A stretch of 64,000 nt of DNA from Forficula auricularia. Its lineage: Eukaryota > Arthropoda > Insecta > Dermaptera > Forficulidae. Position numbers and translations under genes: made by a program. Each line of letters begins with the position of its first letter. Within the stretch, counting starts at the first letter, position 1. Shown here one piece after another: positions 325 to 39,900 of this stretch. The notes under the pieces are model-generated. The model did no database searches. It saw only the letters and a program-made list of their open reading frames with translations, and was not told the origin of the DNA. The DNA lies in the NCBI GenBank assembly GCA_024734495.1, contig JALMQS010000075.1:10722757-10786756 (forward strand), given 5' to 3'.

Positions 325-3300
325 GTAAAGAAATTATGATTTATAAAATAAAATAAATGTCAATGTCATATTTCTAGTTAACAAATTAGACAGCTCTGCG
401 ATGAAAAAATTGTTTCAATAATTTCATCAGATTCTTATGGATTTTTGGCTCCTGAATCTGAAAATAAATCTATTTATTGTCTATCATATCTAATTTTTTA
501 AAAACAAGAATTAATAATGCTAAATGTATGGTATAAAGTGGGCTCATCCTATTTTAGCCTGTAAAATTACTTGAATATGACTTTTTGTGTAATTTTTTTA
601 AAATTATATTTACTTATAGGGACATTAAAGAATAAAAAAAAGAAAATAATCAAGTCTTAATTTTTCGAAGGGGTTTGGGGGATTTAAAAGGGAAAAACTA
701 GTAGATATGTAACTCTATTTTGGCCTGTAAAAATACTTGAATATTACTTTGTATAATTTTTTTAAAATTACATTTACTTATAGGCACATTAAAGAATAAA
801 AAAAAAAAGAAAATAATCAAGTCTTAATTTTTGGAAGGGTTTTGGGGGGTTTAAAGGGAAAAACTAGTAGATATGTAACTCTCTATTTTGGCCTGTAAAA
901 ATACTTGTACATGACTTTTTGTATAATTTTTTTAAAATTATATTTACTTATAGGGACATTAAAGAATAAAAAAAAAGAAAATAATCAAGTCTTAATTTTT
1001 GGAAGGATTTTGGGGGGTTAAAGAGGGAAAAACTAGTAGATATGTAACTCTCCATTTTGGCCTGTAAGAATACTTGTTCATGTCTTTTTTTAGAATTTTT
1101 CAAAATTATATTTACTTATAAGAACATTAAATAATTCAATAAAAAAAAAAAAAATAGTAAAATCTTAATTTTGGGGTGAGTTTTGGGGGTTTTAAGAGTG
1201 AAAAACTACACCTTTTCTATGTGTATTTCAGAAAAGGCCAATTGTATTTAAAAATTATCAATTAAATATAAGAAAATCACAATTGTATTTCAAAAAATGT
1301 TGATTGTTTAAAAAGTTGTAGGGAAATAAGGACAATAGCTTATGCAAATATTTTTTATTTTATGCCAACGTTTCGCCAACTTTGTTGACTTCCTCAGGGC
1401 TCAAACAAATTAACTTCTTTGCATATTTGTCATTTTATAAATATTCATTCTTAGCAAACACATATAGGCCAGTCATCGAACAGATTGAAAAAATATATGT
1501 GTTTGCTAAGAATGAATATTTATAAAATGACAAATATGCAAAGAAATTAATTTGTTTGAGCCCTGAAAGTCAACAAAGTTGACGAAACGTTGGCATAAAA
1601 TAAAAATATTTGCATAAGCTATTGTCCTTATTTCCTACAACAACTTATTAATTTAATCGATGGACATAAATAATCAAAATAATTAATTGTTTAGTTATGT
1701 ATGTTTATTTTCTGAAATACAATTGAAAAATTCTGAAATACAACTGAGATTTTCTAATATTCAATTGTAAATTCTGAAATACAATTAGGATTCTCTGAAA
1801 TTAACTTGATATTTTCTTAAATAAAATTGGAAAAGGTGTAGTAGATATGTAACTATAAAAATTCAAGAGAGATATGGTCTATTACTATTTCTGAAGATGA
1901 AGATTATAGATTCTTTGAATAAAAATTTTTCTGCTATCTAACTATGTCAGATATTGTCCATCTCGGAGGTCAAGCCAAGTGCCCGGATTGCATTTTAGAA
2001 ATTTGAAGTTTGTTTAAAAAAGAAATAGGTATAAGGCACTATAAAACTACTAGATGCTTTTAATTTATTTTTTAAAGTAACTATTCAAATTTTTAAAATT
2101 CCATTGATAAAGGGAAAAAATTTTCCGAAACGTTTGGATTTTAAATAAACGGTTTCAGATTGTTTTCTATAAAAGATGTGTATTTATTTATATTTATAAA
2201 ACAATCACTGAAATTGTTTCATCATATATCTATATATAACGAATATATATACATATTTATATTCGTTATAAGTATATATTTAAATGTTTATTTGCATCAA
2301 GCAGAAGACAATCTCATTGATTTCTCTTTATGAAAAAAAAACTTAGGTTTTTTTCTTAATAATTTCTGTCGACGCATTTATGAGTAAAATAAAAAAGAAA
2401 ATACCAAAATCTTAATTTTTGAGTAAGTTAATGCTAACTAAAATTGAATTAAAAAAGTGAAAATTTCAACCTGTACCAAATAATTGGGATAGGTTAGAAT
2501 TTTTCCATACCAATTTCTACCCTGTTTGGACGTAGGAATCAGAATATTACACAAAAATACTAACACATATCAAAAGTTGAATTTCCCAGACTGGTCTTAT
2601 TTTTTAACTCCTTATTGTAAATACATATTATATATGGAGACAAAAATTAATCAGTATTGTATGTTTTGTTTGGTCGATTTCATCAGCTAGTTAGATTTTA
2701 TTATTAGATATAAAACTCTAACCAGTGCACATTAATTATATACAATATCACGTACAGAATAAGAAATAAAAACAAATATATAATAATTAACTATAAAAAT
2801 CCATTTATATTTAAATTAGAATTTTTAAAAATATTTTGAACGTTGATCTATTAAAATATTTTATAATAATATGCGGATTTTGCATTATTCATATATCATA
2901 TATATTTCATCATATATCTACATATAACGAATATATAGGTATGCATATTTATATCGTTATAAGTATTTATTTAAATGTTTATTTTCATCAAGCAAAGGAC
3001 AATCTCATTAATTTCTCTTTATGAAAAAAAAACTTAGGTTTTTTTTAATGAATACAACAAAAAAGAATTTTACTTAGCGAAACAGGTTTTAGGTGAAACA
3101 TGATATTAATTAATAAAGTAAAGGGAGTGTGGTTTCACAGTGAATGAAATAAAACTCAAAGAGGTTTATACAAACTCCATATATTTCGGATTATTAGTCC
3201 ATCATCAGGAGTTTACAGGTTACAAACTGTTTGATGGACTAATAATCCGAAATATATTGAGTTTGTATAAGCCTCTTTGAGTTTTATTTCATTCACTGTG

Positions 3301-6300
3301 AAACTACACTCCTTTACTTTATTAATTAATAAAAAAGAAAATACCAAAATTTTAATTTTTGAGTAAGTTAATGCTGGCTAAAAATGAATTAATCACTGGT
3401 CTTATTTTTTAACTCCTTATTGTAAATACATATTATATATTTAATTGAGTATTCTTAGGAATGGAGACAAAAATTAACCAGTATTGTATGTTTTGTTTGC
3501 TCGATTTCATCAGCATCAGCTAGTTAGATTTTATTATAGATAAAAAACTAATCAGTGCACATTAATTATATACAATATCACGTACAGAATAAGAAATAAG
3601 AACAAATATATAATAACTAAGTATAAAAATCTATTTATATTTAAATTAGAATATTTAAAAATATTTTGAACGTTTATCTATTAAAATAGTTTATAATAAT
3701 GTGCGGATATTGCATTATTTAAAATATTTACATATTCTATCCAAATATTAATTAATTCTATTTTGATTCTTTTGTTTTAGGTATCCTAAAAAAAAACAAA
3801 TATAAACTTTATACTTTAGTAAATAATCTAACTCCAGGATTAAGAGGACAAATTCTTTGGGATTGTGAGCCTAATGGATATATTCGTTCAACAAAAGAGT
3901 TAAATGGTATGATAATATTCATATTAATTAATTTTGTTATTATAATAAATTTATTTATTTTTATATTTTTTAGGGTGTGCAAATATAAAAATACATGTCA
4001 ATTTTTATTGTCATAAAGATGGAAAAAATTCATTAGTAGATTTAACAAAATATATGGCAAGAAATATAAAATCTATCAATAATTGATGAAAAGACTATAG
4101 ATCAACTATTACATAATAAATATTCAATTCCTGAACCAGAACTTGCAATTTTTTGTGGAAATACCTGTTCTACTTATTCATTTTTACCTTGGCATATAAG
4201 ACTAACAGAATTTTTGTAAGTAGATTATAAGTGTAATTTATTTTATAAAATAAGACCGCTATAGGTTTCCGGAATGTTATTTCTAGAGAAGAGACGGAAA
4301 ATCATTCAATATTTTAAATTAAATATTACTTATATATAATTTATAAATAAAAAAAATAATTATATATTAAAAATGCATCATCTGCAAAATTACTATTGGA
4401 AAATACTAAATTTTATACATACAGGGTAATTCACACCAAGTGTGACTGAGATATTGTTGGGGAGATCATTTTAAGGTAGTTGTTTCACCATATGGGTTTT
4501 CTTAGGATTTTTTTGAAATTTAGAGAGATTATTATTTAAATACTTCTGCATCTATTGGTGGCAAAACGAAATTTATGAACAATTTAGTTCCGGAGATATT
4601 AAATTACAAAGATAGATTTTTTCAGACTCTTATACATTCCACTTTATATGATATTGAAAAGTTTACATACATATCTATATATATATATATATAAAATTAA
4701 GGTTTTGTTTGTACATTGCTCCAAATCACGCCAAATTTTGGTTGCACACGTTTCAAGCTAAGTTATGAACGAAAACACCCTCAACAAAATTCCTCTCTGT
4801 CTGTATGTCTGTCTGTTTCAGTGGTTTTCGAAAAGTTGCTCACGATTCACGTAAAAACGGCTGAAGGGATTATTATGAAATTTCATATTTACATCAGATG
4901 TCTTCTAACTTACGTTTTTAGCTATATAACGTTTTGATATTTTCACCCCAGAAGGGGGTTTGGGGGGGCACGAATGAAAATTATCAAATAACTCCTAAAC
5001 TATTAACCCTACGGCAAATTTAATGATGAACAAAGTTGTAGGGGATGTGATTTCTGACAACTTATGTTTAAAAAAATTTCCCCAAAAAACCACCCAAAAA
5101 GGGGCGGGGGGGAGGGTGAAAAAATGTAAATTCTTGCCCTTGGAGCAAACTCAACCAAATTTTGTATACATAATCTCTGGGCCTCTAAGAGAGCTAGAAA
5201 CGCAAAAACTAACCACCCAAAATGGGGAGGGGTGTCAAAAAATGAAAATTCTTTCTCTTGGGCCAAACTCAACCAAATTTTGTATACATAATCTGTGGGT
5301 CACTAGAAGGCTAGAAATGAAAAAACTGGGTGCGGAGGGTGGGTTGGGGGGTGGGGTGAGGAGTGAGGCGGAGTAGTGTGTGGGTGCTGGGTTTGGAGTC
5401 CAGGTAGCATAGCGGGGGTGGGGTCCAGGGGTCTAGGCGGGGGTGTGGTGCGCAGGGTTGGAGGGCACGGGGTGGGGTCCGGAGTGGATGGGGTGCGGGG
5501 TCCGAGGTGGGTGGGGTGCGGGGGGTTGGGGGGGTGGTTGAGGTGGGTTTAGGTGGGGGGGGGGGTTTCTGAGAGGCTGGGGTCCAGGGGGCGTGCCCCT
5601 GGCTAAGCAAGAGGGCCGCCGAAGGCGGCCTTGCAGCTAGTTTAATTATAATTAAGAAACTCTTCTTACCATTGTTATAAAAAACTAAACCAACATTAAA
5701 CAATAACTAATACAACAATTTTAATTCATAGTTACAACACAGTTTCTGAGATAATAATGGATTAATAATGAAACATTTAGACTAAAAACAAGCTGGCAAC
5801 AACGCATTTATTTAACCTAAAAAGTGGGTTAACTTTTTTGACCTTTTTTCGCTTCAGCCATTGTCGCAACAGCTTTCAATCGCTTATCAAGAACTTTTTG
5901 TTTTATAAATCTTCCTTTATAATGTATTTTATCTGACATTTCTATGATAAAATATATACAAGCTCGGACAGTGTTGCCAGATTTGTCAAACGAGCACGGG
6001 CTTGGCTAGTAGTGGTACATAAACAGCAAAAAGTTTTGTGAGAAATATGAATCCTTATTGTCTGTTCTATATACTCTAGCATTAACTTTGTGCTAATATT
6101 GTCGCGAAACAACTACCTTAAGCGTAAAATCTTCTATGAACATGGGTTCTCTTTCAATACCTTACTAAAATTTGATTTAGAAATAAGTACAAGCATTTAA
6201 TATCTATTTAATAATGAAAACAACAGATAATTGATATTAATTGTTATTTAAATACAGAATATAACACCTTTGAGGTCAACTAAAGGACTTCATTTACGCA

Positions 6301-8747
6301 GTGTTAAAATAAACACTTGCGAAAAGTTGCCACAATGAAAATAGATGCTGCCATTCGAATTCATAACAAAAATCTGATAGAACTGGTTTATGGCCCATTG
6401 ATGCGCAGGTGTCAAGCTTGAATATGATCTTAAGGAGTACATTTTGAACAGTTTTTGTGAGCATTAATTTTGTTATCAAAATAATCATTAATATTAATTA
6501 TCTGTTGTTTTAATTGATAAATAGATATTAAATGCTTGTACATATTTCTAAATCAATTTTTGATCAACTGTGGTTTTGATTGAAAAGATTTTGTTTTGCT
6601 AGAGTTTAGCAGAGTTAAAATATTACTAATTAAAAAACTGACTGATGATGAAGGTGAAACATTCTAAACTATAGTCTCTAACGAATATCTTTATATACGG
6701 TATATATGATTATTTGCATCAAGCAGAGGGCAATCTCATTGATTTCTCTTTATGAATTTTAGTTCTGGGATTTAAATAGATCCTAGGTTCCTATAACATT
6801 TTATTCTTAAAATAACCTCTCCCCAACAATTTCCCAAAGTTTAACACTCGTGAATCACCCTGTAAATTATAGGGTTAAAAGGGTATTTGAAAACTTAGGA
6901 GGGAGTAACGCCACCAGGGGCTATCCATGTCGTCCATGCTAAAAGAAAATTTAATTTTTGAAATAATATAGTTGAGTTAAATAAAAAGATAATTTTTGAT
7001 AGGGACTGTGTACTCGATTATGATGAATTGTATGATTGATTCAATGAACTTTTAAAAAACAAAGATTTACCAAAAATAATAAATTAAAATTAATTTTTAT
7101 CCAAATTAATAATTTTTAAGGTTCCAACTAACATAAAACAGGACTCTATTACTGTCTCTATAATGTCCGTTTGTGAGCGCATTCTAGTTCGTAGGCTAAA
7201 TAAGATACCAAATCGAAATTTATAAGTTTTAAAATTTAAATCGGATGATCATTTTGGAGAGGGTCGAATTTTTTGTAGGGTTGAAAATTGAAAATATTTG
7301 TTTGGTCCATGGAGTGGGATATTCTAATAAGGCCTTATTAAACAAAATAAGGCTGATTTTTTTTTATTTTTTCGAATTCGCCCACTGATCGTGAAATTAG
7401 AAAATTAATTAAAACATTTTATCTTGACTTTTCATCTCTTTTTGAAAGAATACTGGATGTTTTTATTTTCTCTCAGTATCCTCTAAAAATTTCTAAATGT
7501 TTTATCAAAAATTTTAATAAAACTACTAAGTCCAAGTCAGACTCACATGTCGAGGGTTCCGTACCTAATATAAATATATACATAATATAACTAGCTGAAT
7601 GGGCCTTCTCGCTCCCTGAATTCAATACTTCGGTCCGCTCAGAGACTGGCAGGTAGCAGAAAAATTATTAAATTTTTCAAATTACTTGTGATATCATATT
7701 CTTTCTTATTTGCTGTCTTTCATAAAGAGAGAATTAATTAATTTTAAGAATTTTAATTTAACTACTTGATTGAAATTTGGCTGGTACAAAAATCACATAA
7801 GAATGGCCACTTTAGGATCCCACACATCATTTTAAAGCAAAATAAAATAAAGATAAGAGTAAATAGATATTTTATTTAATATGGATTTACTATGAGTTAA
7901 GGATACTGGGTCACTTATTTCACATTAAAATTAAAAATTAAAAGATATAAAATTTTTTTTTTTTTTTTCAATATATATATTTCGGGCTATCAACCCATCT
8001 TCAGGAAATACAGAAGGTAACAGTTACCTTCTGTATTTCCTGAAGATGGGTTGATAGCCCGAAATATATATATTGAAAAAAAAAAATTTTATATCTTTTA
8101 ATTTTTTAATTTTAATGTGAAATAAGTGACCCAGTATCCTTAACTCATAGTAAATCCATATTAAATAAAATATCTATTTACTCTTATCTTTTATTAAAGA
8201 TGTTTCACCTTGCACCAACACCACAATCTCTACTGATTAGCAAAATAAATGTAAATAATCAAGCTTAATTCTCTTTAAAAAGATTTTTACAAGGATACCT
8301 CACACCCTATAATTTTTTTTTTACTTTTCTCAGCCAACCCTAAAAAAAATACTGGAATAAGTACTCTTTAAAAGATTCGAATGAATTTCCATTAAAAAAA
8401 TAAGATGATAAATCGACCATGCTTTCTGTAATGGAAATTTTGGTTGATATGGTCTATCTTTTTATTATAATATATATTCTCTTTTTATTATATAATAACT
8501 TTTAATCTTGAAAATAGTATATTTAGCAATAATTTATAAGGAAGCCATATATTAGAAAAAACTACATATTTATTTGTATAATTGGCTGCCTCATAAATTA
8601 TTGCTCCATATCAACATTTTCATCAAACCATACTTATAGAAAATTATTTTTTTCAGACAATTGAAATCTCATCATGATGTTCAAGTTTTTGAATTTATTT
8701 CCATATTGGAAAGATACTCCAAATGTCACAAACGATTTGGAACATAA
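18..8747 (+). CDS. NUS1: NUS1 / Nogo-B receptor gene, 4 exons (exons 18-324, 3781-3906, 3974-4215, 8657-8747)
   Basis: Non-catalytic subunit of the cis-prenyltransferase that makes dehydrodolichyl diphosphate at the ER membrane. Seen: a hydrophobic N-terminus (about residues 4-40), then LPYHLVFIIGNE, WCLAAGISYLS and DHKG in exon 1, which follow the cis-prenyltransferase-like fold of NUS1. Exon 3 holds the family hallmark FLPWHIRLTEF. Exon 4 ends in RYSKCHKRFGT-stop, the C-terminal RxG motif needed for complex activity. Splice phases are 1, 1, 2 with GT-AG borders. Total is about 254 aa; human NUS1 is 293 aa. An in-frame TAG at 15-17 limits the start to Met 18 or Met 27; Met 27 has the better context. 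Exon 3 switches frame near 4078-4086 (TGA at 4084), so the copy is either slightly broken or carries a sequencing error. Introns 1 and 3 are full of repeats; intron 2 is 67 nt. Confidence 0.9.
541..1215. repeat. tandem repeat, about 170-bp unit, nearly 4 copies, in NUS1 intron 1
   Basis: Units start near 541, 713, 885 and 1047. Each runs from 'TTTTGGCCTGTAAAAATACTTG' type sequence through 'GGGACATTAAAGAATAAA' to 'AAAAACTAGTAGATATGTAA'. Copies differ by point changes and A-run length. The first unit and its left flank resemble 57880-58340, so the array grew from a dispersed repeat. Confidence 0.8.
1310..1650. repeat. Penelope-type hairpin (inverted repeat, arms about 150 bp)
   Basis: The left arm from 'AAGTTGTAGGGAAATAAGG' is mirrored by 'CCTTATTTCCTACAACAACTT' on the right. 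Each arm contains a hammerhead-like core; the left one (minus strand) is intact, while the right one has lost two core bases (CTGAAAG). A short unmatched centre lies near 1460-1490. Confidence 0.8.
1367..1397 (-). ncRNA. hammerhead-like ribozyme core (left arm)
   Basis: Minus strand reads CTGAGGA, one extra A, stem II GTCAAC/GTTGGC with an AAA loop, then GAAACGTT. Six stem II pairs (one G-U). Stem III is reduced to about two pairs, as in Penelope-associated hammerheads that act as dimers. Confidence 0.6.
2205..3735. repeat. direct duplication of a dispersed repeat (2205-2885 and 2875-3735) in NUS1 intron 1
   Basis: Long blocks occur twice in the same order: 'CATCAAGCAGAAGACAATCTC' (2297, 2988), 'ATACCAAAATCTTAATTTTTG' (2400, 3343) and 'GGTCTTATTTTTTAACTCC' (2594, 3394). 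The second copy is lengthened by a Penelope-type hairpin. Confidence 0.75.
3104..3330. repeat. Penelope-type hairpin (arms about 105 bp)
   Basis: Arms run from 'ATTAATTAATAAAGTAAAGG' to its mirror at 3330. The left arm (minus) has CTGATGA-T-GGA...TCC-GAAA at 3184-3208. The right arm is degenerate (CTGTTTGATGG). Confidence 0.75.
3781..3906 (+). CDS. NUS1: NUS1 exon 2
   Basis: Acceptor TTGTTTTAG at 3780, donor G|GTATGA at 3907. Encodes ILKKNKYKLYTLVNN..., continuing DHKG as in the family pattern DHxGIxKxN. Ends in phase 1. Confidence 0.85.
3974..4215 (+). CDS. NUS1: NUS1 exon 3 (with frameshift)
   Basis: Acceptor TTTTTTAG, donor TT|GTAAGT. The first third reads in the expected phase and hits TGA at 4084-4086. 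From 4082 a frame shifted by one carries IIDEKTIDQLL... and FLPWHIRLTEF to the donor, and that frame is the one that joins exon 4. One extra base (or two missing) near 4075-4085 explains it. Confidence 0.85.
4674..5640 (+). mobile_element. Helitron (non-autonomous) inside TTAA copy 1
   Basis: Starts TCTATATATATA and ends in the hairpin GGCCGCCGAAGGCGGCC, a short spacer and CTAG, then T. It sits precisely between A and T. Copies 2 and 4 of the host repeat lack it and read straight across the joint (ACATACATA with TTTAATTATAATT). The ORFs inside it are non-coding shadows. Confidence 0.85.
5326..5620 (+). repeat. G-rich minisatellite-like tract
   Basis: The + strand is dominated by runs of 2-10 G separated by GT/GA/GC words, with almost no C. 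It contains many possible G-quadruplex sets. It lies near the Helitron 3' end and recurs, C-rich on the + strand, at 23275-23625. Confidence 0.8.
7980..8004 (-). ncRNA. hammerhead-like ribozyme core
   Basis: Minus strand CTGAAGA-T, stem II GGGT/GCCC, GAAA followed by TATAT. It mirrors the + strand core 36 bases away. Confidence 0.55.
8040..8064 (+). ncRNA. hammerhead-like ribozyme core
   Basis: CTGAAGA-T, stem II GGGT/GCCC with a five-base loop, then GAAA and an AT-only stem III candidate. Same family as the cores at 7980 and 20072. Confidence 0.55.
8657..8747 (+). CDS. NUS1: NUS1 exon 4 (C-terminal, RxG motif)
   Basis: Acceptor TTTTTTTCAG. The phase-2 junction gives LTEF-LQLKSHHDVQVFEF... 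and ends CHKRFGT-stop. This aligns with the family end (YxxCxxRxGK). It is a short exon 4.4 kb from exon 3, behind a Helitron-bearing TTAA element and a long hairpin. Confidence 0.85.
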
Positions 8748-10072: not shown

Positions 10073-10081
10073 GTCCTTTAA

Positions 10082-19867: not shown

Positions 19868-19977
19868 TCTAAAAAAAAAGCATTTTATTTGGGTAAAATC
19901 TTTCTATTCTATTATGAATGAAATATCTTTTATAAATTATAGCAGACAATATACCTATATTATTGGATAAAAAAATA

Positions 19978-20172: not shown

Positions 20173-21060
20173 ATTTTTTATCCAATAATTTAAAAAGTGT
20201 TTCACCAAGTACCAACACCAAATTCCTTAAAAACTAATATAGAGGTACCTACATTTAGTTAAAGTATATGAATTAAATAATCATTTCTTCACCAAATAGG
20301 AATTTTTTAATAATACCTACTTATATAACATCTGATTGAAACATAAATACTTAAATTTGTCTTTGTGAAGAAATGAATATTTAATTAAATGTATTAAATA
20401 TATTGACTGCTATACCAGATAGTTTATAAAAAAATATATTATATTATATAGGTAATATATAGATAGGAATTTCTTCATTTTTAAATAACATATTATTATA
20501 AATAATATAGTTGAATAATTTAATGAAGAAAATGGAACCTGAGATTTATTTTAAATTTTATTTTGTAATTTGACAGTTATTATCTCTTCATCAAGCCTTT
20601 GAAATAAGTTCGTTTTAAAATATACATAAATCAAAGAATGTGTCCTCTACTTGATGTAAATAAATATACACAGAGGGGAGCTGAGAACCCTGCCTCTGAT
20701 GGGTCCGGGGATCACGCGATAAATTCAGATAGGGTGGTTTCCTGAATGAAGGGTTGAGTCATTAAAACTTAAAAAAGCCTTAATTTTTACAAAATGTATA
20801 TTGCTATTTACAAAAAATATTTAATAAGGGGAGGGGAAGAGAGATAAAACCCAATCCCAGTGGTTCTGTATATACATATAAAAATTTAATTATACACATA
20901 CAATGACTAAAAAATAAGACAGAAGAGAAATACAAAGCCTTCGAAACTAAAGTCCCAAATAAATGAATTTATACATATAATTTTATTTCTTTGCTTTTAT
21001 CTTCAGTCTTATTATATATAAATAGTGTATAAGAACATTTATTCCAGCATTAAGCTGTAA
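20173..21060. other. AT-rich spacer with repeat scraps
   Basis: 20640-20670 carries the Penelope-associated word (ACTTGATGTAAATAAATAT) reversed. 20675-20760 is a scrap of the MITE at 47551. 20935-20960 has GCCTTCGAAACTAAAGTC, the 3' half of a hammerhead-like core. No gene is seen. Confidence 0.45.
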
Positions 21061-22190: not shown

Positions 22191-22195
22191 TCTTA

Positions 22196-25851: not shown

Positions 25852-26099
25852 TCGAACTAAGAAATATAATCTTGCAAAACTTTGGTGACACTAATTTTTA
25901 TTTGTTAATTGTCAAACATTTGTTGTCACAAAATTGAAATATATTTAAGTATAATAATTAAAATGAATTAGTACCTATTTTTATTATTTATATCTATTTC
26001 ACTACACCGTTTCGGTCACCAGTGATTCTCTATCTATAATTCTTAGTTTTTAATTATTAATGACAATTTTCAAAATTTAAAAACATTAGTTATTTATTA

Positions 26100-26132
26100 C
26101 TGAAGATGGCCACACCGTGGTGATCGAAACTT
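26100..26132 (+). ncRNA. hammerhead-like core, direct repeat unit 1
   Basis: CTGAAGA-T, a CCAC/GTGG-centred stem II, GAAAC, TTATC. Repeated at 26296-26328. Confidence 0.4.
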
Positions 26133-26295
26133 ATCTATAGTGAATTTATATAAATAAAAATAATAATTTATTGTAATTTTGAATATTAACGAATAGAATA
26201 AATAAAATAAATTAGAATTATTTTGAATATTTAATACTTAGTTTTTAATTATTAATGTACAATTTTCAAAATATAAAAACATTAGTTATTTATTA

Positions 26296-26328
26296 CTGAA
26301 GATGGCCACACAGTGGTGATCGAAACTT
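26296..26328 (+). ncRNA. hammerhead-like core, direct repeat unit 2
   Basis: Same as the core at 26100, with ACC to ACA in the stem II loop region. Confidence 0.4.
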
Positions 26329-26639
26329 ACCTATATAGTGAATTTATATAAATAAAAATAATAATTTATTGCAATTTTGAATATTAACGAATAGAATAAA
26401 TAAAATAAATTAGAATTTTTTTAAATAAATCCCCGTCTTTTTTTAATTAAAACAGCCTATTCATATAATCATTTGATAGGTGAGAAAATGCAATAGGTAT
26501 ACCTACTATCTCTAATTTAGATTAGGTTACTTACTTGAACTATGATCATCAAATAGAATTAATAAATATATAAAAAATAATTATATATTCATAATATATG
26601 TTTATTATCCATATGTATTATTCCAAAACATAACTTTAA

Positions 26640-27951: not shown

Positions 27952-30900
27952 GTTTAATAATTGTTTTTTTTTTTTAATTAATTTTACTAAATATATTTTA
28001 TTCCCTATTTAGCTCAATGTTCTGGTTGATACTGGAAGTACAAACTTTGCAATTGCTTCATCGCCTTTATCTTATGTCTCCTCATATTTTTACACAAATA
28101 GGTGAGTTTAAATGTCAAAGATTATTTAATTAAATATTTAAATAGAGGCAGTATTTGAGGCACCAAGAAATGAAATAAAATGTTTTCCTGATTATAATGT
28201 TAATAGTATTATATTTTCCATATCTTCTTCAGGACATAAACTGTCAATCTGTCAAGATAGATTAAAAACAAATGACATAGATTCTGGTCAGTTCTTTATC
28301 TATTATAGTTTTCAAGGGCCCTCTGCTTGGGTTGGGGTCTCCTCTTTTTACTTTACCATACAAGTATTGTAATCGTTCTTGATGAAAAAATAATTTTCTT
28401 TGCTTCATTTTTTCGGAATATCTCAAAAGCAGCTCAAACTATTTTAATAAAAGAAATTGAGCGAAGCCTAGCCTATGTCGTTTTGTTCTACAAGAAAGCT
28501 TATAGAGTGAACATCGAAAATATTATATTTTACGAGAAATTAATTAAAATTGTCAATACGTCTGTTAGTACGTTAGTTATTATGTCCATTACCAAATTAT
28601 GTCTACTCTCTATCTCAAAAACTAGTATGAATATGAATAATCAATAATAAATTTCACTGTAGAAGCTGATTTGATTTTGGTTGAAATCAAATCGTCTCTC
28701 TTAAAATATAAAATTATAAAATTTTCAATCTAAAAAACCAAGTTGACTGAAATTTACTTTGAAAGGGTCCTATAATAAAAAAGATAGGCATTATTTCTTT
28801 AGGGGACCAAAATTTCAACTCTTAATAATTTGGTAAGTATATTATTAATGTTAAATTGAAAAAGAACCGTGTTTGGTGGCCCTATTTTATTTTAATGAAT
28901 TGACTAAGGGGCCAGTTATGGGAAAAAGTTGAAATAAAAGCCAACTTCTATTTATTTTGGGCAGACGTAATCGATATTGTACAACGTTTCGAGCGCTACA
29001 CCGCTGCTCTTCATCAGTGCACGTAAACCAAGTCACAAAAACACGCAAAATTTATCTCCAGCAGATGTTTTACATTTGGAATCATTATACTGGTAAACAC
29101 TGGTAAACAAGCTATTTCAACTGAACAATTTCAATTACTGTTCAAATACTGTGTAATGATTCCAAATGTAAAACGTCTGCTGGAGATAAATTTTGCGTGT
29201 TTTTGTGACTTGGTTGACGTGCACTGATGAAGAGCAGCGGTGTAGCGCTCGAAACGTTGTAAAATATCGATTGCGTCTGGCCAAAATAAAATATTAAATA
29301 GAAGTTGGCTTTTATTTCAACTTTTTTTCCCATAACTGGCCCCTTAGCCAATTCATTAAAATTAATGTTAAACATATACATATTTATTAGTTTTTAAAGG
29401 ATGATGAATGAAATTCAATTGCTTCTTTTCAGAATGCACCAAGCCTTTTAAATTTCTTATTAATATTTATTAGTATCATCATTTATGTTTTAGCTCCAGC
29501 AGTTATGAAAACACACATAAAACGGTGGAAATGAATTATACTCAAGGAGAATTAGTTTCTGAATTAGGACATGATGTAATCTCCTTCCCATCTTTCGAAA
29601 AAGTTCCTCCAGTCAAAACTACAGTGGCTTTTATTTTTACCGCCCATAATATATTCATTAATGGTTCAGATTGGCAAGGAATATTAGGTAATACTTAATT
29701 AATTATAAATATATATTCCTATATTTTTTAAGATAACTAATATTTAAACATAATTCAAAATTTTTATTTTTTTATTTATAATATAGTCAGGTTTATTATT
29801 TTTCGTATTTTTTAATTAAGAAGTGTATAGTTACAAAAGTCCACTAAACATACTTTTGAGAAATTGGAAAATTCTTTCTAGTCAACTCAGCTAACTAAGA
29901 TCTGTTTTTTTTTTTTTTTTTTTTTTGCTTTTCGGCCCTTCTAGCCATAAGCCTAATTACGATACTAGATATATTTTTTAAAATTTGTCTCTACCCCCGG
30001 GGGTCAGATTTTGGCTGGCTGCCTCGAGTCGGATTCGAACCCGGGTCTCCTGGTTAGCTCGCTGTCACGCTACCGACTAGCCTATCGACCCCCCCAACTA
30101 AGATCTGTTAAAATTAATTTTATTGATATACATCTCAATTCGCTGTCGTTTCATGAAGTAAACTGAACCCTCTCTTACATCGTCCACTAAAATCAGAAGA
30201 GAAATAGCATCAGACGTCAAGAGAACCAAGCAAGAAAATGATTCTCACCAGCACCCGTTTATTTATGTCCCAGACTAGCTTCATAGCAAGAATAAACTAA
30301 CTCTAGGGTTAACAGCAAGAGAACCTAGTAATCATAATAAGCTCAAAGAATTAACAACAACGCCGAAAGAAGAAATAGTCCCTGGAAACGAATTTACTGT
30401 GGACGCATTTATACCTAATATGTATTACATATTCAATAGGGCTGCTTTGCACGAGAATTCACGCTAAGTCATTGTGAATCTAGTTTATTTAACTCGGGTC
30501 TGCTCCCTAGCGACAACACGCTATGCAATACAGGAAAACTCAAGACCCGGTACATATGCTGGCTTGCAGACTATTAACTGAGCCATTAACCGATTTTTTA
30601 AAGACAAATGAGAAAAGCAGTGCTGTGGCTATATTCTGATAGTACAGGATAACTCAAAAGAACCTCCCTAAATTGAAAGGTGAATAAAAAAAGGAACGGT
30701 CAGGGATAATCAAAATTTTATTATATCCCATGAACAGCATTCAAAACAGTTTGTTTTCATCAAAAGGCCCGAAGACGCTGTCGGGAGATGTAGGCAGAGT
30801 TTTCTGTTTTGTATGAGCGTTCGAGTACCCTGGAATTCTCTAGCAGTGAGATAGGGTTTGGAACGCGTAGAGTTTTACAAATCACATCTTCCTGGACACC

Positions 30901-33900
30901 GTTGTCGACGCATATTTGTAGGCGATTTCTGAAAGGCTAGTCATTTCTTGTGGATTGGCAGCAACCTCACTTTCACTGATGAGTTTCAGACCTGCGATAG
31001 TATGGGCTCAATCTTTATACAGCCGTGCTTTGAGATAATGGCACAAAAAGAGGTCCGAAACGAGGGAACCAACTAGCCAACCAACATCGCCACACAAAGA
31101 AATCAAGAAATCAACTGATCCGGAAACATTTCGCTCAGCACCTGCAACGACCTCCGAGCTGTAGTTACGGCGAGGGGTGAACCGTGACCTAATATCGTGT
31201 ACACCTACTTCCACTTCCACTTTCATTTCCAAGTAGAAGACAATAGATTAAGGGGCATTATCTAATGAATTGCATAATAATTCCACATCATTTCAAAGAC
31301 GTGTAAACCTAATTCCAATCGTGGTTCACCTCTCGATTTACGGTGACTCCATCCTGCTGAACACTTCACCTCAAAATCGTGATGTTCAAGTTGCAGTTGA
31401 AGGAAGTTTTGAAGCTTTTCAACATTCCGGTCGGAAGTTAGCTTTACAGTACACCCTCTCACACACCTTTTGATTTCTTTGAGGTTATCTCACAAGGGCT
31501 GTATATAAAGATCTCCCCCCAAACTATCACAAGGTGCCATTGAAAGTGATGTTGATGTCATTCCACTAGAAATGACTCGCTGAGCTTTCAGAAATCGCCT
31601 ACAAATTAATATGCATCGACAACGGCAGCCAGCTAGATGAAATTCTTAAAAACTGATGAATGTTTTGAATACTGTTTCTTGTGATATAATAAAATTTATA
31701 TTATTTATGACTACATTTTTTTATTTACCTTTATATTTGGAAAGATTATTTTATTAAACTAAGAGAGTGTTGGTTTATAGTGAAACATTATCTAAATTAA
31801 AATTAAGGGGAGTTTTTGTGGGGTATTCACAGAAATGAAAGATTTAAAAAGTTTTTATAAACCTCAATATATTTCGGGTTTGGCCCATCTTAGTACATAG
31901 ATTAAATGACAAAAATATATATATATATATGTATTGAGGTTTATATAAACTTTTTTAGATCTTTCGTTTCTGTGAAACCCACAAAAACTCCCCTTAATTT
32001 TAAGGTTCTTTTGTGTCACTCTATAATGTTTAATCTGAATATGGAAACACTGTAAGCAACTTGGTCAGCTGTTTAGCAAAAACAGCAAGTTGAGCTGATA
32101 GGGAAACATTTTTACAAGCTTATAAATAGTTTAACACAGAGAAATGGCCCTTCTAAAAAACTTGTTTAGCTTGTTGGTACTCGTCATATTTATCATAAAA
32201 ATTTGAGGCAGGAACCCGAGACGCCCTTTTTTACTTTTAAGGAAATAACTTACTATTCATTCGCCATTTCTTCGTTTCAATACCACGGCAATTTGTTTTC
32301 ATTCATTTAATTGAGAACCCTCTTTTTCATTTTCATTAGATTTTATCTTTTTTAATTAGTTATCGTTGAATCCATTCTCTTAGATTTCAAATTATTTTCC
32401 TTATTATTTTACCCAATCATCTACTCATCCACTCTCTTTAATGTAATTATTCTCTCTGCATTGATATATATTATTCATTTATCACTTAATCATTTTTTTT
32501 ATAGGTTTAGGTTATCCAGCAATATCACAACCGTCAAAAGAAGTTCACTCTTGGATCGATGAAGCTTATGATAAAAGAAAACAATTAGGAATCCCAGGAA
32601 ATTTTGTTTTTGCTTTAGAACTTTGTGGATTGGATGAAGAAAACAAACTTAAAGGATTATTTGAAGTTTTTGGTAATTTATTTTATATACGTATATACTT
32701 GCAAATATATATTAATTTAATTCTTAAATAAAAGTTCTTAGTGACTTGGACTATGACAAATCAAAAACAACAATTAATTTGAAACCAAGTTTCGTCTCTT
32801 TATTGAGACTTTCTCAAGCTCTTAAATATTAAGAAAATATATTTTATTATTTCAAAGTAAACGTCTGAACCCTGAATTATTTAGTATCAACCTTATTTAA
32901 AACTATAATAATAAAACTAAGATACGAGGTAGGTTTCACAAAAAAGAAATAAAACAAAATTGAGTTTTGAATTTCTTTTTTTTGTGAAACCTACCTCGTA
33001 TCTTAGTTTTATTATTATATTAAAATGTTTCACCTAGAACCAACACCGAACTCCTTAAAAGTTATTATTTAAAACTACCTATAATTAATAATTGAGCAGA
33101 AAATATATCTATAGTATCTCACGTGAAACAATAAAGATACTAAAAGTTTAATAAAGTCTAATTTAAGATACAAAACGTTGCTCAAATTAAATGTTATTTA
33201 TTATTTTCTTGAAGTCCAAATCCCTAAGAACATAATTTAAGATTTACAGAATGATGAACGCTAATCATATAAGTTAATTATTTAATATTATCCATTTTGT
33301 AGATATTCTTCCGACACCGCATCAATTGAGAGCTCCATTAATTCGGGAATGGTTTTATGAAGTTACTTTAGTAGGTCTTTCAGTTGGAGGCGAAAAACTT
33401 AGTTTACCTTGTCAAACATTCAATTCAGATAAAGCTATTGTTGATAGTGGTAAGAATTTCTTTATTTTTATTATGTTATATTTTTTCTTATATTTTATGA
33501 TATCTTAAATTTTCAAAAGGAAGAAATTCAATAAAGAAAGAATTTTGGAATTGCTGTAATTTAAAGTCTCCATTATTTTTTATGAAAAAAGTCGTCTTCA
33601 GGAACTCAGAGTTAAGGTAGTTGTTCCGCCAAATGGGTTTTCTTAGGATTTTTTTGAAATTTAGGCAGATTATTATTTAAATACTTCTGCATCGATTGGT
33701 GGCAAAATGAAATTTATGAACAATATAGTTCCGGAGATATTAAATTTCAAAGAATTTTTCAGACTTATACATTGCACTATACGGGAAATCGGAAAATTTA
33801 CATACATATTTAATTATAATTAAGAAACCCTTCTTACCATTTTTATAAAAAACTAAACCAACATTAAACAATAACCTATACATATTTTAAGACAATTTTG

Positions 33901-36900
33901 ATTCATAGTTACAACACAGTTTCTGAGATAATAATGAATAAATATTGAAAAATGTATAAAAAAAAATTTACACTAAAAACAATTTTGCAACAGCGCATTT
34001 ATTTAACCACCGAAAGATGTATAAAGCGCACATGCGCTAGATTTTTTCAAAATTATAATAATAAGGTGTAACGTAGGTGTTGATAACATTTGTTAAAAAA
34101 TAACAAAACAATTTTAATATAAATTTTTTAACTTTTAAAATGTATTTTATCTGTCATTTTAATATAAAAATATTCAATCTCTTACAATAGTGCCAAACGA
34201 GCACGGGATTGGCTAGAATCGGTACAAAAACAGCAAAACGTTTTGGGCTTATGAATTATGAATCCGTATTGTCTGTTCTATATACTCTAGCATTATCTTT
34301 TTGCTAGTATTGTCGCGAAACAACTACCTTAAAAGAATGTTTTTTTGTTTTGTTTTTTGAATCTAAGACAATTCTAAAACACTAAACCTGATTATAGGGC
34401 GAATTATTTTGTGATCACTCCTCCACCCCAAGAACTCCAAATCATTTCGCTTACACTAAATAGATGTTCATTCTTTCAAGACCCGCATTCACAGATACCT
34501 TCAATTCCCAATCTCTAAAATTTCTCTTTCTTTTCACAACAAAAGGGTCCACCGCGGACTAAATTGGTTGTTCCTTTTTTGGTGCAACTTCTTGTATCAA
34601 TATCATTACAAAAAAAAAAATCATGAAAATCCAATATAAAATATCTTTCAAAATTGTATTTTATATAATAATACATTTAATCTAACATTTTTCTAATTTT
34701 ATCTGTAAAGATCAAAAATCAGTTAAAAATAATAAAATTCTCATTTTTTTTTTTATAGATTTAGATAAGTAAAAATAAATCAAATTACATAAGCTAAGCA
34801 ACCGAAATTTTTTCGAATAGGCTCAAAAATTATTTTTAGAAAATATTAGGTATAGGTATTTATATTATTTTTAAAAATATTCTGATATTTTTTCAAAAAC
34901 AAATTTTTGAGCTTTCCAAAAAAATTTTTAGACTTCACTCATGAACTACAGTAACTTTAATTTTATTTATGTTTACTTATCTCAATCAAGATCTGGAGAA
35001 AAAATTATGAAGAGGGCATTTTTATTCTTCTTAAATGATTATAGATCTTTAGACGTAAAAATTTTTGAATTAAAATGTTGGATTAAAAGTAGCTACTTAC
35101 TATTAATTATATTATATAAAATGATATGTTTGGAATTCAGAATTCCGTTAATCACATATGTAATTTCATTTTTTAACTTATCTAGCTCGACACCAAGAGG
35201 AAGGAATATCTAAAAAAAATTTATTGGAATGACATTTTCATATTTTTACTTTACCATACAGGGTATGGTCAAGTATTGTAATCGTGCATGAAAAAAGTGG
35301 TTTTTTTCCTTCTTTTTTTCGAAATATCTCAAAAACGGCAGAAACTATTTTGAAGGAGACAATAAAAGAGTTTGTCTTCTGCTGGAATTATAAATTTTAT
35401 TTATTTATAACGAGACTATAGTTTCGAGGGCTTTGCCCTCTTCATCAGTCTATTACAACGGTTTCACAGGAATCCATTTATGAATCCATCATAAATGGAT
35501 TCCATGTCGAAACCATTGTAATAGACTGATGAAGAGGGCAAAGCCCTCGAAACTATAGTCTCGTTATAAATAAATAAAATTTATAATTCCAGCAGAAGAC
35601 AAACTCTTTTATTGTCTCCTTCAATATATAAAAATTCTGCTACTCTCGGCAAAAACATTCAATTTAAGAAACTATTTTGATTAAAAAAATTGAGCGAAAC
35701 GATGGCATTTCGGTCTACAAAAAGCCCTAACAAGTGAACATCGAAAAAATTATATTTTTTGAGATAATAATTGTTTTGTCAAAATGTCTGTTAGTTAGTC
35801 TGTCTGGCTGTCTGTTTTTTTTTTTTAATGCAATCGAATGCAAGAAGGGGCTTACCAGTAAAGATGCAGCTCCTATGTATCTCGAAAGACCCTTGCATTA
35901 CCAAAGAGAAGGGTAAGTTTATTAAGGATGGAGACGTATGTGTTTATGCACTCGGGTTTTGAAGGTTTGAAGGTTATAAGTGCTGGGAAAGATGGAGGCT
36001 GGGAGAGAGTTCCAGTTCCTTGAAGTCATGGGGATATGGGGGTTGTTAGTTAGTCTGTGCGTTACCAATTTTTTGTGGACGAGCTAGCTCAAAAACTAGT
36101 GAGAATATCGAAACCAAATTTCACACGTAGTTTTGGTCCATTGAGATTAAGAGCTGATTAGATTTTGGTGCATATCGACCCAAAATTAAGAGGGATGTAG
36201 GGGGGGGGGGTTAAAAATTAAAAATTGGACCCCAGAAGTCTAAAAATGCAAAAACTAACCGCCCAAAATAAGGGGTTGGGGGGGGAAGACGGTGTAGGAT
36301 CAAAAAATAAAAATCTTGTCCATTTACCCAACTCAACCAAGTCTAAAAATGCAAAAACTAACCCCCCCTCCCCTACATGATTATAAATAAATTTATTAAA
36401 TATTAAATATAAGTGAGGGGCCAGGTTGTATGGTAAAGTCAAGTGGCCACATCAGAACACTTCATCTTATTTTTTATTGTTTTCAAACTTTTAGAGATAA
36501 TTTTTTTTTTAATAATATCGATGCAATTTATTTCTTATTTATTACAACATTAAGCCCAAGAAATAAAATAATTTTATATTTTTAAATGAAACCCAGGCTT
36601 TTCCAAAGTGGTTCCTTCAATGAATTAATGAATAAACTAAAACAATTACACCCATCTTATTTAATAGAAATTTTTATTTACATTCCTTTACTTTTTTCTC
36701 TTTGATTTTGACCTGCTTTTAAACTTTTTCTTTAAGTATATTTTTATACAATTATGAAATAATAACTTTATCTACTTTTTAAGGAACCACAAGCCTTCGG
36801 CTTCCAAAGAATGCCCATGATACTCTTCATGATCGAATAAATACCTATATGGAAGGACACGGGCTTACGATTTCAGCCGATTTTTGGGCTCAGAACAAAA

Positions 36901-39900
36901 TGGCTTGTCTCTCTCAACCGTTGAATTGGACTTTATTCCCGAAAATCTCTCTCTCTGTCATGGCAGATAAAAATAATTTTTTTGATTTGACATTACCACC
37001 AAAAGTATGTAACTAATTCATTTTAAATATTAAAAAATATTTGCTAAAAATAGTTTTAAAATTCTTTTTTTATTTAGTCGTATATACGCTTATTACATAA
37101 AAATGAATCTTCTCTGCAAAATGAATTTTGTTATAAATTTGCTATTGAACCATCGAATACTGGAACTGTTTTAGGTACGATATAACAAAATTATTTTTTA
37201 CGTAAATTTATTAACTCAGTTGGGCAATATACACCAGATCAGCTATTTGAAATACCAAATACCTGAAACATACATACAAAATAATTCTAAATTCAAGGCT
37301 TATTTTTAGGAAGAAGGCCTTAAGGAGGTACTTTCACGACAATCCACACAAAAAGTTTTAGCCTCGTAACCACTCCAAAAATATGAACGGAACTAAAATT
37401 TTAGGTTATGTTTTTTTAACGTGACTGTCCACTCACACTACGAAATCTCTATATGGATACACACATACTAGCCTGATCGTTTCCAAGCCATTGTGCTTAT
37501 ATCCCTTCCACTAAAAATAATCGCCCAAATATGTTTGTTTTTTGTTTTTTGTCAAAACTACGTGGTAAATAATTTCAATTTTTTTTTAAGTTACTCCGAA
37601 TATATTATTCTAACATACATTAGTTTTTCATCAAGATGGTGAAAGTCCTTCAATGAAAAAAACTAAAATAATGATCATATCCCCACCCTTTCCCTATCTA
37701 CCCTATGTAAAAAATATCATTTTTAATTGCAATTATTTCATGTTTGGTGTGGTAAATCGTCTTCAAATTTTAACAGTATGTGTATTATGCTTTAATGACT
37801 TATATTCCAAGTTTCAAAAACTTCACAAAGAGAAACAAAGAGATTGTCTCTGCTTGATGCAAATAAACATATACACATATATATCAAGATGATATATCTG
37901 CATATATATATTATTTATTTGTTTGAGACTATAGTTTCGAAGACTTGGTCTTCATCATCAGTCTTTCTTCAATTATAAATGTTTTTCATGGAGTCAATAT
38001 CATATGGATATTGAAAACTTGGTGTTCCTTCGTCACTGGAAAGCTAGCAACTAACAAAGACACTCTCTCCGGGCTCACACTCAAATATACTACTCTCGGC
38101 AAAACAAAAAACATTTCAAAAACTTCTTGAAATTTTGCATTTGTGAAAGAACTACCTTAAGTTTAGAAAATAGATTAATTCATAATTGCTCAGTTAATAT
38201 AGATATAATATAATTTAACAATAAAAATGTTAATTTTACAAATATACTAGCTGTGATATTAGTTAAAAATACATCAATGGCTTGATTTTTATTCGTGTTA
38301 TGTTATATATAAAAATATATAATTAGATTAAACTCTTCTAGTCTTAAAATAAATATAATGTTATAAAATTAGATTATTCAAAAAATACTTTTTTTTTAGA
38401 TATTTTCAAACTAATTACTCCGATAATTATGGTAGTTGACAGAAAAATGGAATTAAATAGACGAATAGACCGTGAACAGAAATATCATCTTGAAAAATGA
38501 GATAATTAGTTAGAAGCACAACGCTTCGGTCATAGCTTCTGCTTGGAAATACGTTCTTGGATATTTAAGCTGATGATTAAGAGTTAACACAAAATTAGCG
38601 TTCTAAAAGTTGAATATGAGAGATTTTAAGTTGCCGATAGTAATAGATTTAAATTTTCTTAGAAAATCGTAAGAGAGTGTCATCTATTAAATCCGATGGA
38701 ATGGATTATTTTTAATTATATGTCAGAAGGGTTGTTTTTTACTCGGGAATCGAACCCGAGTGCCAGTAAAACAGCAACCCAGGCCATTTGGCTACCCTAT
38801 GAGGTGCGAACCCCTCTGACATATGTAAACGCGTTAAATATTTTACTCAAAGATTGTTTCGCGATCTAGTGATTCTAAATTTAAACACATAACCATCCCA
38901 TATAGTTTAAATAAAGGTGGTTGAGTTTTGAAGAGATTCAAAATTCGAAGGGCAATGGAATGACTTTCCAAATTGAATATGAGAGATTTCAAGTTGCCGA
39001 TAGTAATAGATTTAAATTTTCTTAGAAAATAATAAGAGAGTGTCATCTATTAGACCCAATGGAATGGATTATTTTTAACTGAAAAACACTCTCTTATGAT
39101 TTTCTAAGTTATAAAAGTTGTGTATTCTAATGCGTTTTCTCATTAAAATGTCCAAATTAAGTGATTTCAGTAGAAACCTCTCGATTGATAGATAAATTTA
39201 AAAATATAGTTTATAATATAGCCCTGGAAAAATTATAAATATTTCTTATAAAAATGTATTTGAAGTATTTTCGATGTAAATTCAAATAGATTTGAAATAC
39301 AAAATACCTCAGCAATGTATGTATTTGAAATGCCAATTAAAAAATACCTACCCCTCAAATTGAAATACAAGTAAAAATAGATATATTTTAAAGACTTCAC
39401 TTCTATTTACTAATGAAACTTTTTTTTTCTAATTCATAGGCTTGGTAGCAATGGAAGGATTTCGGATGGTGTTTAATCGAACAGGGAAATTTATTGGATT
39501 TTCAAAGTCATCTTGTGGTCCTGATGTCAGTCTTGAAGGACCTTTTCGATCTGAACAAGGTACAAGTTAACTACAATATTTAATCAAAAACATTTTACTT
39601 ATATTGTATTTATATTTCCATTCTTTTGTTTTTTTATTATTAGATTTAAGCCGATGTTCATCTTCATTTTCTGGAGTCAATGCTCTCACAATCGCTGCAT
39701 ATATAATAGGAGGTAATCTTTAGAACTATTTCACTAACACATAATACAAAATTTCAAAATTTAAACTACAGTAGGACCTCGTTTAGCACTTCGGATTCAG
39801 TCGACAAATCGCTAAACGTAACGAAGTTAGTAAGGCTTTCTCCAGAAACCTGCAGTAACTCCTTACTTAATATACTGCTCATCTACATCTCTTAGTCTTG

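What the first reader, a model, noticed from the sequence alone, without database searches (positions are those of the whole stretch)
1367..37961. Many hammerhead-ribozyme-like cores in one 64-kb window
CTGANGA, one extra base, a 3-6 bp stem II and GAAA(C) recur with different stem II sequences but conserved core letters: 1367, 3184, 7980, 8040, 14422, 15075, 16183, 20072, 28983, 29224, 35414, 35526, 37927, with weaker ones at 10036, 25822, 26100, 26296 and 27015. Stem II pairs covary between families (GTCGA/TCGAC, GAGGGC/GCCCTC, GAAGAC/GTCTTC, GGGGGA/TCCTCC), as expected for an RNA under selection. Penelope-like retroelements are known to carry hammerheads with a much reduced stem III that cleave as dimers.
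Basis: partly seen in the sequence, partly recalled or inferred. Interest (0 to 1): 0.75.

Follow-up and report, generated by a model that had tools for sequence, protein, structure and literature searches.

The report
Hammerhead ribozymes of Penelope-like retroelements
The repeated ribozyme-like motifs are real and are pieces of Penelope-like jumping genes that have spread small back-to-back inverted copies through this animal genome, and the regular anatomy of those copies records how the elements insert themselves into DNA.

Summary
All 13 strong cores are there (10 insertions) and stem II covaries. The window lies in a 1.06-Gb genome with 121,314 matches to a core pattern, against 3,008 for the reversed pattern, so it is not a special cluster.

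An uninterrupted 825-aa reverse transcriptase + GIY-YIG frame, about 74 kb away, is followed by the same hammerhead-bearing repeat (95% identical to window 38089-37880).

At one spacing, genome-wide, one family shows 1,507 outward, 53 inward and 115 direct pairs. Each of 17 two-armed insertions with a target-site duplication (9-20 bp) has one flush arm and one arm with a further 22-47 nt, the 'tail' (one read by eye). The ends recur at the same sites in copies of a family.

Inverted arms, the optional tail and dimeric cleavage are published for PLEs. The one-tail regularity and de novo junctions are the additions. Rfam finds no hammerhead above threshold; catalysis is untested.

The parts
1300..1640 (.). 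PLE-type insertion, head-to-head arms; hammerhead C3 1397 (-, to 1367), damaged partner at 1552-1607 (+). Outer limits uncertain
   Evidence: no target-site duplication found
3068..3330 (.). PLE-type insertion; hammerhead C3 3208 (-, position 17 is G in this arm), tailed left arm 3068-3103, 9-bp duplication AAAAAAGAA at 3059-3067 / 3331-3339
   Evidence: paralogous empty site 2263-2452 aligns across the joined flanks
7847..8238 (.). PLE-type insertion, hammerheads C3 8004 (-) and 8040 (+), tail on right arm, 11-bp duplication AGCAAAATAAA at 7836-7846 / 8239-8249
14268..14615 (.). PLE-type insertion, hammerhead C3 14453 (-), partner arm core broken at GAAA (14482 +), tail on left arm, 16-bp duplication 14252-14267 / 14616-14631
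14939..15216 (.). PLE-type insertion, hammerhead C3 15075 (+); left arm truncated inside the hammerhead (arm identity starts 24 nt before the predicted cleavage site); tail homology on right arm. Outer limits uncertain
16123..16347 (.). PLE-type insertion, hammerhead C3 16214 (-) with 8 of 8 scored stem I positions paired, tail on right arm, 11-bp A/T-run duplication 16112-16122 / 16348-16358 (low complexity)
16624..16676 (+). 53-bp tail-only insertion with 16-bp duplication GATTATCTATAAATTA at 16608-16623 / 16677-16692
19956..20245 (.). PLE-type insertion, hammerhead C3 20072 (+); left arm ends at or 5 nt before the predicted cleavage site; tail homology on right arm; duplication only 6 bp. 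Outer limits uncertain
28856..29360 (.). PLE-type insertion, hammerheads C3 29017 (-) and 29224 (+), tail on left arm, 12-bp duplication ATTAATGTTAAA at 28844-28855 / 29361-29372
31797..32003 (.). Arms of a PLE-type insertion with a decayed hammerhead (CTAAGA where CTGAAGA is expected) and a tail motif beyond the left arm (31789 -)
32896..33047 (.). Inverted arms with the same family tail (33022 +) and no hammerhead core
35354..35666 (.). PLE insertion, hammerheads C3 35448 (-) and 35526 (+), tail on right arm, 14-bp duplication AGAAACTATTTTGA at 35340-35353 / 35667-35680
37880..38089 (-). Copy without inverted partner: stretch after the reading frame + repeat with hammerhead C3 37961, 95.3% identical to the stretch 3' of the 825-aa frame in L034
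40588..41067 (.). PLE-type insertion with damaged hammerheads (40749 -, 40909 +; GAAC for GAAA)
6642..6780 (+). Decayed copy: core with first G of GAAA lost
2263..2354 (+). 5'-truncated copy whose match to the 35526 family begins exactly at the first nucleotide after the predicted cleavage site; duplicated at 2954-3045
26037..26427 (+). Two direct 198-bp repeats, each with hammerhead core letters (26100, 26296)

Best explanation
The motifs are the minimal type I hammerhead ribozymes carried in the pseudo-LTR repeats (pLTRs) of Penelope-like retroelements. Shown here: conserved core with covarying stem II; palindromic stem III tract; arms of one insertion inverted head to head; target-site duplications; for one family, the same repeat after an uninterrupted RT + GIY-YIG frame and between two frames of a tandem array; two recurring outer ends (A and B) in copies of a family, one of each in the 17 insertions that could be judged; a different arm junction in each of six copies of one family. 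Inferred: the element's GIY-YIG endonuclease makes staggered nicks about 12 bp apart in A/T-rich DNA; each nick primes its own cDNA inside the element RNA, one at site A and one at site B some 25-50 nt further 3'; each cDNA runs back through the hammerhead for a variable distance; the two inner ends join head to head. Long cDNAs give coding copies, short ones the small palindromes seen here. The ribozyme, acting as a dimer across stem III, would cut tandem-array transcripts into units, but the cDNA templates had mostly not been cut at that site.
For: Core and stem statistics; stem I pairs 32 of 45 positions against 20.9 +- 3.1, p 6.5e-4. Genome counts 121,314 against 3,008; one family 29,207 against 0. 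Orientation: 1,507 outward, 53 inward, 115 direct; in the sample, 21 of 32 assessable cores have an inverted copy of their own arm upstream, 1 inverted downstream, 1 direct upstream, 0 direct downstream. Coding link: L034, 825-aa frame with RVT_1 E 1.7e-15 and GIY-YIG E 4.6e-6, hammerhead repeat 3' of it and an inverted tail-bearing arm at its 5' end; L035, frame end - hammerhead - A - B - next frame, matching a palindromic copy at 98% over 236 nt. Duplications: sample 10 of 15 palindromes with direct repeats of 12 bp or more, where 2.4% of 210 mismatched flank pairs reach 11 (mean length p 0.0037); window 6 of 11 at 11 bp or more, 3.6% of 110 mismatched pairs (the 13-bp repeat at 3208 lies in the arm ends, its duplication is 9 bp). 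One tail: 17 of 17 two-armed insertions with a duplication (11 in the sample, 6 in the window). Junctions at -24, -50, -64, -72, -75, -94 nt from the cleavage site in six palindromes with the ACTATAGT tract. The shorter arm crosses the cleavage site in 18 of 21 palindromes with a defined site.
Against: No hammerhead family of Rfam at threshold. Many copies are damaged. In 6 of 9 families folded alone the hammerhead pairing lies 2 kcal or more above the predicted minimum. No RNA or cleavage data. Two-strand priming is not shown: spacers between arms are 15 nt or less in 10 of 24 palindromes, which self-priming also predicts. Two of the 17 duplications are only 9 bp (L028a, 3208), one is an A/T run (16214), and L018c (extra 41 and 15 nt) was counted after inspection; 9 further palindromes had no usable duplication. 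Left arm of 20072 has an 18-nt match to the tail family. 8 of 30 sample and 3 of 16 window cores are not in palindromes. The right end of the L034 copy stops about 60 nt before site A.
Confidence: 0.82

Rival explanations
1. Same PLE identity, but the second arm is made by self-priming: the first cDNA folds back (or the RT jumps to an antisense template) and copies itself outward, giving a hairpin that is later replicated.
For: Self-priming is proposed in PMC3846280 (Discussion section read) from palindromes at inverted junctions. Arms of a copy are 89-99% alike in 21 of 24 palindromes and spacers are 15 nt or less in 10 of 24, although junctions differ between copies of a family.
Against: Flush arms end at a recurring site A and the others at B in copies of a family; PMC11167929 (main text section read) reports two internal RT start sites bounding the tail, and cleavage and extension of both strands. 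Self-copying has no obvious reason to stop at A. Spacers of 27-123 nt occur in 14 of 24.
Confidence: 0.3
2. The units are non-autonomous animal non-LTR retrozymes spreading through small circular RNAs.
For: Size 198-712 bp for two-armed copies and type I hammerheads; 26037-26427 and the short arrays listed are direct tandem repeats with the motif.
Against: Retrozymes are described as tandem repeats, expressed as RNAs of about 170-400 nt, with canonical hammerheads (PMC7229834, passages); here pairs are outward-inverted 1,507 to 115 direct, stem III is minimal, and for one family the repeat belongs to an RT + GIY-YIG element.
Confidence: 0.06
3. Foldback or MITE-type DNA transposons that resemble hammerheads by chance.
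For: Near-perfect inverted repeats; 24242-25439 in the window looks like a DNA transposon with long inverted ends.
Against: Duplications of 9-20 bp, one-sided tail, ragged junctions, conserved core with covarying stem II across families.
Confidence: 0.02
4. Chance matches in A/T-rich DNA.
For: CTGANGA alone is common: 17 expected in the window.
Against: 17 against 0.71 full cores; 121,314 against 3,008 genome-wide.
Confidence: 0.01

Closest known systems
Minimal type I hammerheads of Penelope-like elements (Cervera & de la Pena 2014; Lunse, Weinberg & Breaker 2017: known to me from recall and from passages and reference lists of reviews; neither paper is held)
   Same: Type I core, tiny or absent stem III, location in the pLTR of RT + GIY-YIG elements (shown here for one family), expected to act as dimers
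   Different: Here one genome with several stem II families and 121,314 pattern matches; palindromic stem III tract in 26 of 30 sample cores. I could not check whether the unread papers report the palindromes
Penelope of Adineta vaga (PMC3846280, passages and Discussion)
   Same: Inverted head-to-head pLTRs; a 31-bp tail optionally on one of the inverted pLTRs; an inverted copy 37 bp shorter; duplications of 8-10 bp in the cases seen
   Different: The word ribozyme does not occur there; here one tailed and one flush arm in 17 of 17 insertions with a duplication, and duplications of median 12 bp
PAc, Poseidon of Anolis carolinensis (PMC11167929, main text section)
   Same: Hammerhead by the pLTR-ORF junction; two internal RT start sites bounding the tail; both DNA strands cut and extended
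   Different: There no difference in start site between strands was seen in vitro; here each judged insertion has one of each
Animal non-LTR retrozymes (PMC7229834, passages)
   Same: Type I hammerheads, short, non-coding copies
   Different: Direct tandems with canonical hammerheads there; mostly inverted pairs with minimal hammerheads here

Membership tests
Penelope-like elements (endonuclease-containing) | Single frame with reverse transcriptase and C-terminal GIY-YIG | tested here: met
   L034 825 aa: RVT_1 357-556, GIY-YIG 718-757; 150 scored GIY-YIG matches in the genome (of 3,423 candidates), 8 with open frames of 800 aa or more by my count of the list. In the window itself: no RVT_1 or GIY-YIG in 40 of the 41 stop-to-stop frames of 90 aa or more (one frame, 45075-45344, was not scanned)
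Penelope-like elements (endonuclease-containing) | Repeat (pLTR) between tandem units | tested here: met
   L035 frame end - hammerhead repeat - next frame; matches spaced 2,909 and 2,908 bp in C563
Penelope-like elements (endonuclease-containing) | Inverted pLTR, tail, short duplication | tested here: met
Penelope-like elements (endonuclease-containing) | Coding element for every stem II family seen | tested here: inconclusive
   Shown only for the ACTATAGT family with stem II GAAGAC; the ACGT and AT-tract families share the insertion anatomy only and their coding elements were not looked for
Hammerhead ribozyme, type I | CUGANGA, stem II, GAAA core | tested here: met
Hammerhead ribozyme, type I | Stem I | tested here: met
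   32 of 45 positions paired against 20.9, p 6.5e-4, with cleavage sites placed by me; strong in 16214, 3208, 14453, 1397, only 2 bp in 35526 and 37961, none at the base in 29224
Hammerhead ribozyme, type I | Stem III | tested here: inconclusive
   Cannot form in a monomer in ACGT families; possible between two copies
Hammerhead ribozyme, type I | Rfam model above threshold | tested here: not met
   best RF00008 21.1 bits against 48.5; none at 3150-3230
Hammerhead ribozyme, type I | Self-cleavage | not testable with these tools
   needs transcripts
Non-LTR retrozyme | Direct tandem of short non-coding units | tested here: not met
   1,507 outward-inverted against 115 direct at the same spacing; exceptions 26037-26427 and short arrays

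The most novel reading that the evidence does not exclude
PLE integration is an obligately asymmetric two-cDNA reaction: one nicked strand is always extended from start site A and the other from B, because two element RNAs are held in the complex as a dimer, paired through the palindromic stem III of their hammerheads. Dimer formation would thus serve template pairing and two-strand priming as well as, or instead of, cleavage, which would explain both why these ribozymes are built to work in pairs and why the insertions are inverted pairs.
Probability: 0.12. Interest if true: 0.75.

Novelty: new member of a known kind. Interest (0 to 1): 0.5.

Why it matters
How Penelope-like elements insert and what their ribozyme does are described as open in the papers I saw (PMC11167929, PMC7761336, PMC3846280). 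A genome with 121,314 matches to the core pattern, the one-tail regularity, duplications of about 12 bp and junctions that differ from copy to copy turns the question into something countable, and gives exact predictions for an in vitro insertion assay (one product starting at A, the other at B). It also shows that Rfam's hammerhead models pass over this abundant class in the window.

Tried and rejected
1. 'cDNAs end at the hammerhead cleavage site': in the window, the 20072 left arm and 2263/2954 end there, but none of the 13 sample palindromes with a defined site falls within 3 nt of it; dropped as unsupported. The p of 0.013 came from the window alone. 2. Rfam as arbiter: the long hairpins gave miRNA matches below those families' thresholds, which I take as meaningless. 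3. Covariance model R1 was built from 14 window motifs, 4 of them decayed; its hits on those and their sister copies are by construction. Independent value: window 2093-2150 and 45 hits at E 0.01 or less in 250 kb elsewhere. 4. Relatives in viral contigs: 0 matches to one exact pattern of one family. 5. The first palindrome script on the sample was faulty (overlapping halves, 9 rows) and was replaced. 6. Palindromes left out of the tail count for want of a usable duplication: in the sample L011, L012, L028:8843, L032; in the window 1397, 15075, 20072, 31797, 40909. L018c was counted after reading it by eye because its flank is a tandem repeat. 7. A count of pair orientation from the listed places (23 outward, 0 inward, 1 direct within 1 kb) is by hand and is not relied on. 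8. The genome sample is 25 pieces of 10 kb, all from one contig; 60 further pieces asked for were not given, 5 of them were fetched. 9. Host species was not identified.
Full report
Observation. The 13 strong cores are real and on the stated coordinates. A descriptor (CTGANGA, stem II of at least 3 bp, GAAA) gives 17 hits in the window against 0.71 +- 0.83 in 100 Markov shuffles. Across nine family representatives stem II pairs at 35 of 36 positions; re-dealing the 3' strands gives 22.2 +- 2.9 and never 35 in 20,000 trials; stem I, with cleavage sites placed by me, pairs at 32 of 45 positions against 20.9 +- 3.1 (p 6.5e-4); the tract from 15.1 to 16.1 is a perfect palindrome in 8 of 9. By a fixed rule a palindromic tract starts at 15.1 in 26 of 30 sample cores and 12 of 16 window cores. 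On 14 aligned motifs stem II is 94.3% paired against 64.0 +- 4.4%. Rfam reports no hammerhead at its thresholds or up to E 10 over the window; given 126 bases around 16214 it lists RF00008 at 21.1 and 17.6 bits, far below 48.5, and none around 3208. ACGT families cannot form stem III alone, which I take to be what the models ask for. In 6 of 9 families the hammerhead pairing of a single copy lies 2 kcal or more above the predicted minimum.

Not a local cluster. The window's assembly is a 1,061,512,967-base genome. The core pattern (CTGANGA, a short variable stretch, GAAAC) matches 121,314 times, the reversed pattern 3,008 times; the narrower pattern ending in GAAACTATAGTC 29,207 against 0. Twenty 10-kb pieces of the same contig hold 28 cores, shuffles 0, 0, 4, 0, 1. 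The window is somewhat richer than that sample, no more.

Anatomy. A census that ignores the motif (arms of 60 nt or more, 80% identity, spacer up to 150) finds 14 close inverted repeats in the window; 9 hold a descriptor hit, a tenth (40588-41067) a damaged core and an eleventh (31797-32003) a decayed one. 13 of 17 descriptor hits, sister arms counted apart, lie in the 8.1% of the window covered by the 14 (p 1e-11). The 3' side of the hammerhead faces outward. In 250 kb elsewhere on the contig, of 32 assessable cores 21 have an inverted copy of their own downstream arm upstream, 1 an inverted copy downstream, 1 a direct copy upstream, none a direct copy downstream; with a better centre search 22 of 30 sample cores and 13 of 16 window cores are in head-to-head pairs. 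Genome-wide, pairs of the GAAACTATAGTC tract 120-150 nt apart are outward 1,507, inward 53, direct 115, reversed-pattern controls 0.

Insertions. Flanking direct repeats of 11 bp or more are found for 6 of 11 window palindromes against 3.6% of 110 mismatched flank pairs, and of 12 bp or more for 10 of 15 sample palindromes, where 2.4% of 210 mismatched pairs reach 11 bp (mean length p 0.0037). For 3208 the repeat found automatically lies in the arm ends; its duplication is 9 bp, and a paralogous stretch at 2263-2452 aligns across the joined flanks. Counting the 10 sample cases, L028a (9 bp), the other 5 window cases and 3208, 17 two-armed insertions have a duplication. In each, one arm ends flush (within 9 nt of the arm alignment) and the other continues 22-47 nt further, left 10 times and right 7; L018c shows 41 and 15 nt and was counted only after inspection, and the 16214 repeat is an A/T run. 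Nine palindromes (4 sample, 5 window) had no usable duplication. End points recur in copies of a family: L026a, 35526 and 16601 and, in a related subfamily, L019 and L026b end the tailed arm at or just past TTCAATT, while the flush arms of L026a and 35526 end at TCTCCT(TCAAT) and those of L019 and L026b at TTTGTG or CTTTG. Among palindromes without a duplication, tail homology is seen on one arm of 15075, 20072 and 31797, with one doubtful 18-nt match in the other arm of 20072. Arm junctions differ between copies: -24, -50, -64, -72, -75, -94 nt from the cleavage site in six palindromes with the ACTATAGT tract, so in this family the palindrome seems to be made anew each time. Of 21 palindromes with a defined site, the shorter arm crosses the cleavage site in 18: the template RNA was usually not cut there.

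Link to the coding element. A GIY-YIG search of the genome scored 150 of 3,423 candidates; 8 have uninterrupted frames of 800 aa or more by my count, and three matches in C563 are spaced 2,909 and 2,908 bp. One about 74 kb from the window in the same contig (L034) reads 825 aa with RVT_1 (E 1.7e-15) and GIY-YIG (E 4.6e-6). After it lies the hammerhead repeat: 97.7% identical over 133 columns to the L019 palindrome and 95.3% over 213 columns to window 38089-37880. At its 5' end lies an inverted arm with the tail (96.3%). Its right end stops about 60 nt short of site A, which I cannot explain. The tandem junction L035 reads frame end, hammerhead, site A, site B, next frame; the L019 palindrome matches it at 98% over 236 nt and stops at site B. 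So the window motifs of this family are pLTR hammerheads of a PLE. For the ACGT and AT-tract families no coding element was looked for; they share the anatomy.

Mechanism. In PMC11167929 (main text section) the Anolis element cuts and extends both strands and starts reverse transcription at two internal sites that bound the tail; no strand difference in start site was seen, and cleavage of the hammerhead was not needed for insertion in vitro. In PMC3846280 (passages and Discussion) Penelope inserts have inverted pLTRs, a tail optionally on one of them, and 8-10-bp duplications in the cases seen; self-priming is proposed. My data fit two priming events, one at each start site, most simply; self-priming remains possible because spacers are 15 nt or less in 10 of 24 palindromes. 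One of each in 17 of 17 would have a chance of at most 0.5^17 if starts were chosen independently; with L018c counted against it, p is 1.4e-4 (arithmetic on typed counts). I saw no statement of a strict one-of-each rule in the passages and sections read; the searches were made, in an open-access library that lacks several key papers.

Known or new. Minimal PLE hammerheads, their dimeric action, inverted pLTRs and tails are known. This is a new, very abundant set of members with clean statistics. Catalysis, transcription and the host's name remain unknown.

Noticed in passing
window 18160-19284: Broken mariner-type transposase in several frames (HTH_48, Transposase_1, DDE_3).
   Followed up: no
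window 42581-45654: Copia-type LTR retroelement remains in broken frames (Retrotran_gag_2, rve, SH3_retrovirus, RVT_2).
   Followed up: no
window 24242-25439: Element with inverted arms of about 565 bp, 93% alike, ending ACAGGGTGTCCC, probably with a TA duplication; looks like a DNA transposon remnant.
   Followed up: partly
G000 C96:23390238, C219:35589811, C365:2438650, C666:2022452, C750:147774: Short direct tandem arrays (about 80-160-bp spacing) that repeat the hammerhead tract GAAACTATAGTC: satellites apparently made from PLE pieces (list).
   Followed up: no
window 26037-26427: Two direct 198-bp repeats each with hammerhead core letters, retrozyme-like in layout but with a doubtful position 17.
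   Followed up: partly
window 2263-2354 and 2954-3045: Duplicated PLE fragment whose match to the 35526 family starts exactly at the first nucleotide after the predicted cleavage site.
   Followed up: partly
window around 14905 and 15285: An outer inverted repeat (TGTCCACATCCC) surrounds the 15075 insertion, as if it sits inside an older palindrome.
   Followed up: no
window 549-1208: 168-bp tandem array, 3.9 copies; related pieces at 58135-58363.
   Followed up: no
window 19376-19903 (-): 176-codon open frame with a Myb/SANT-like DNA-binding domain (E 5.9e-22).
   Followed up: no
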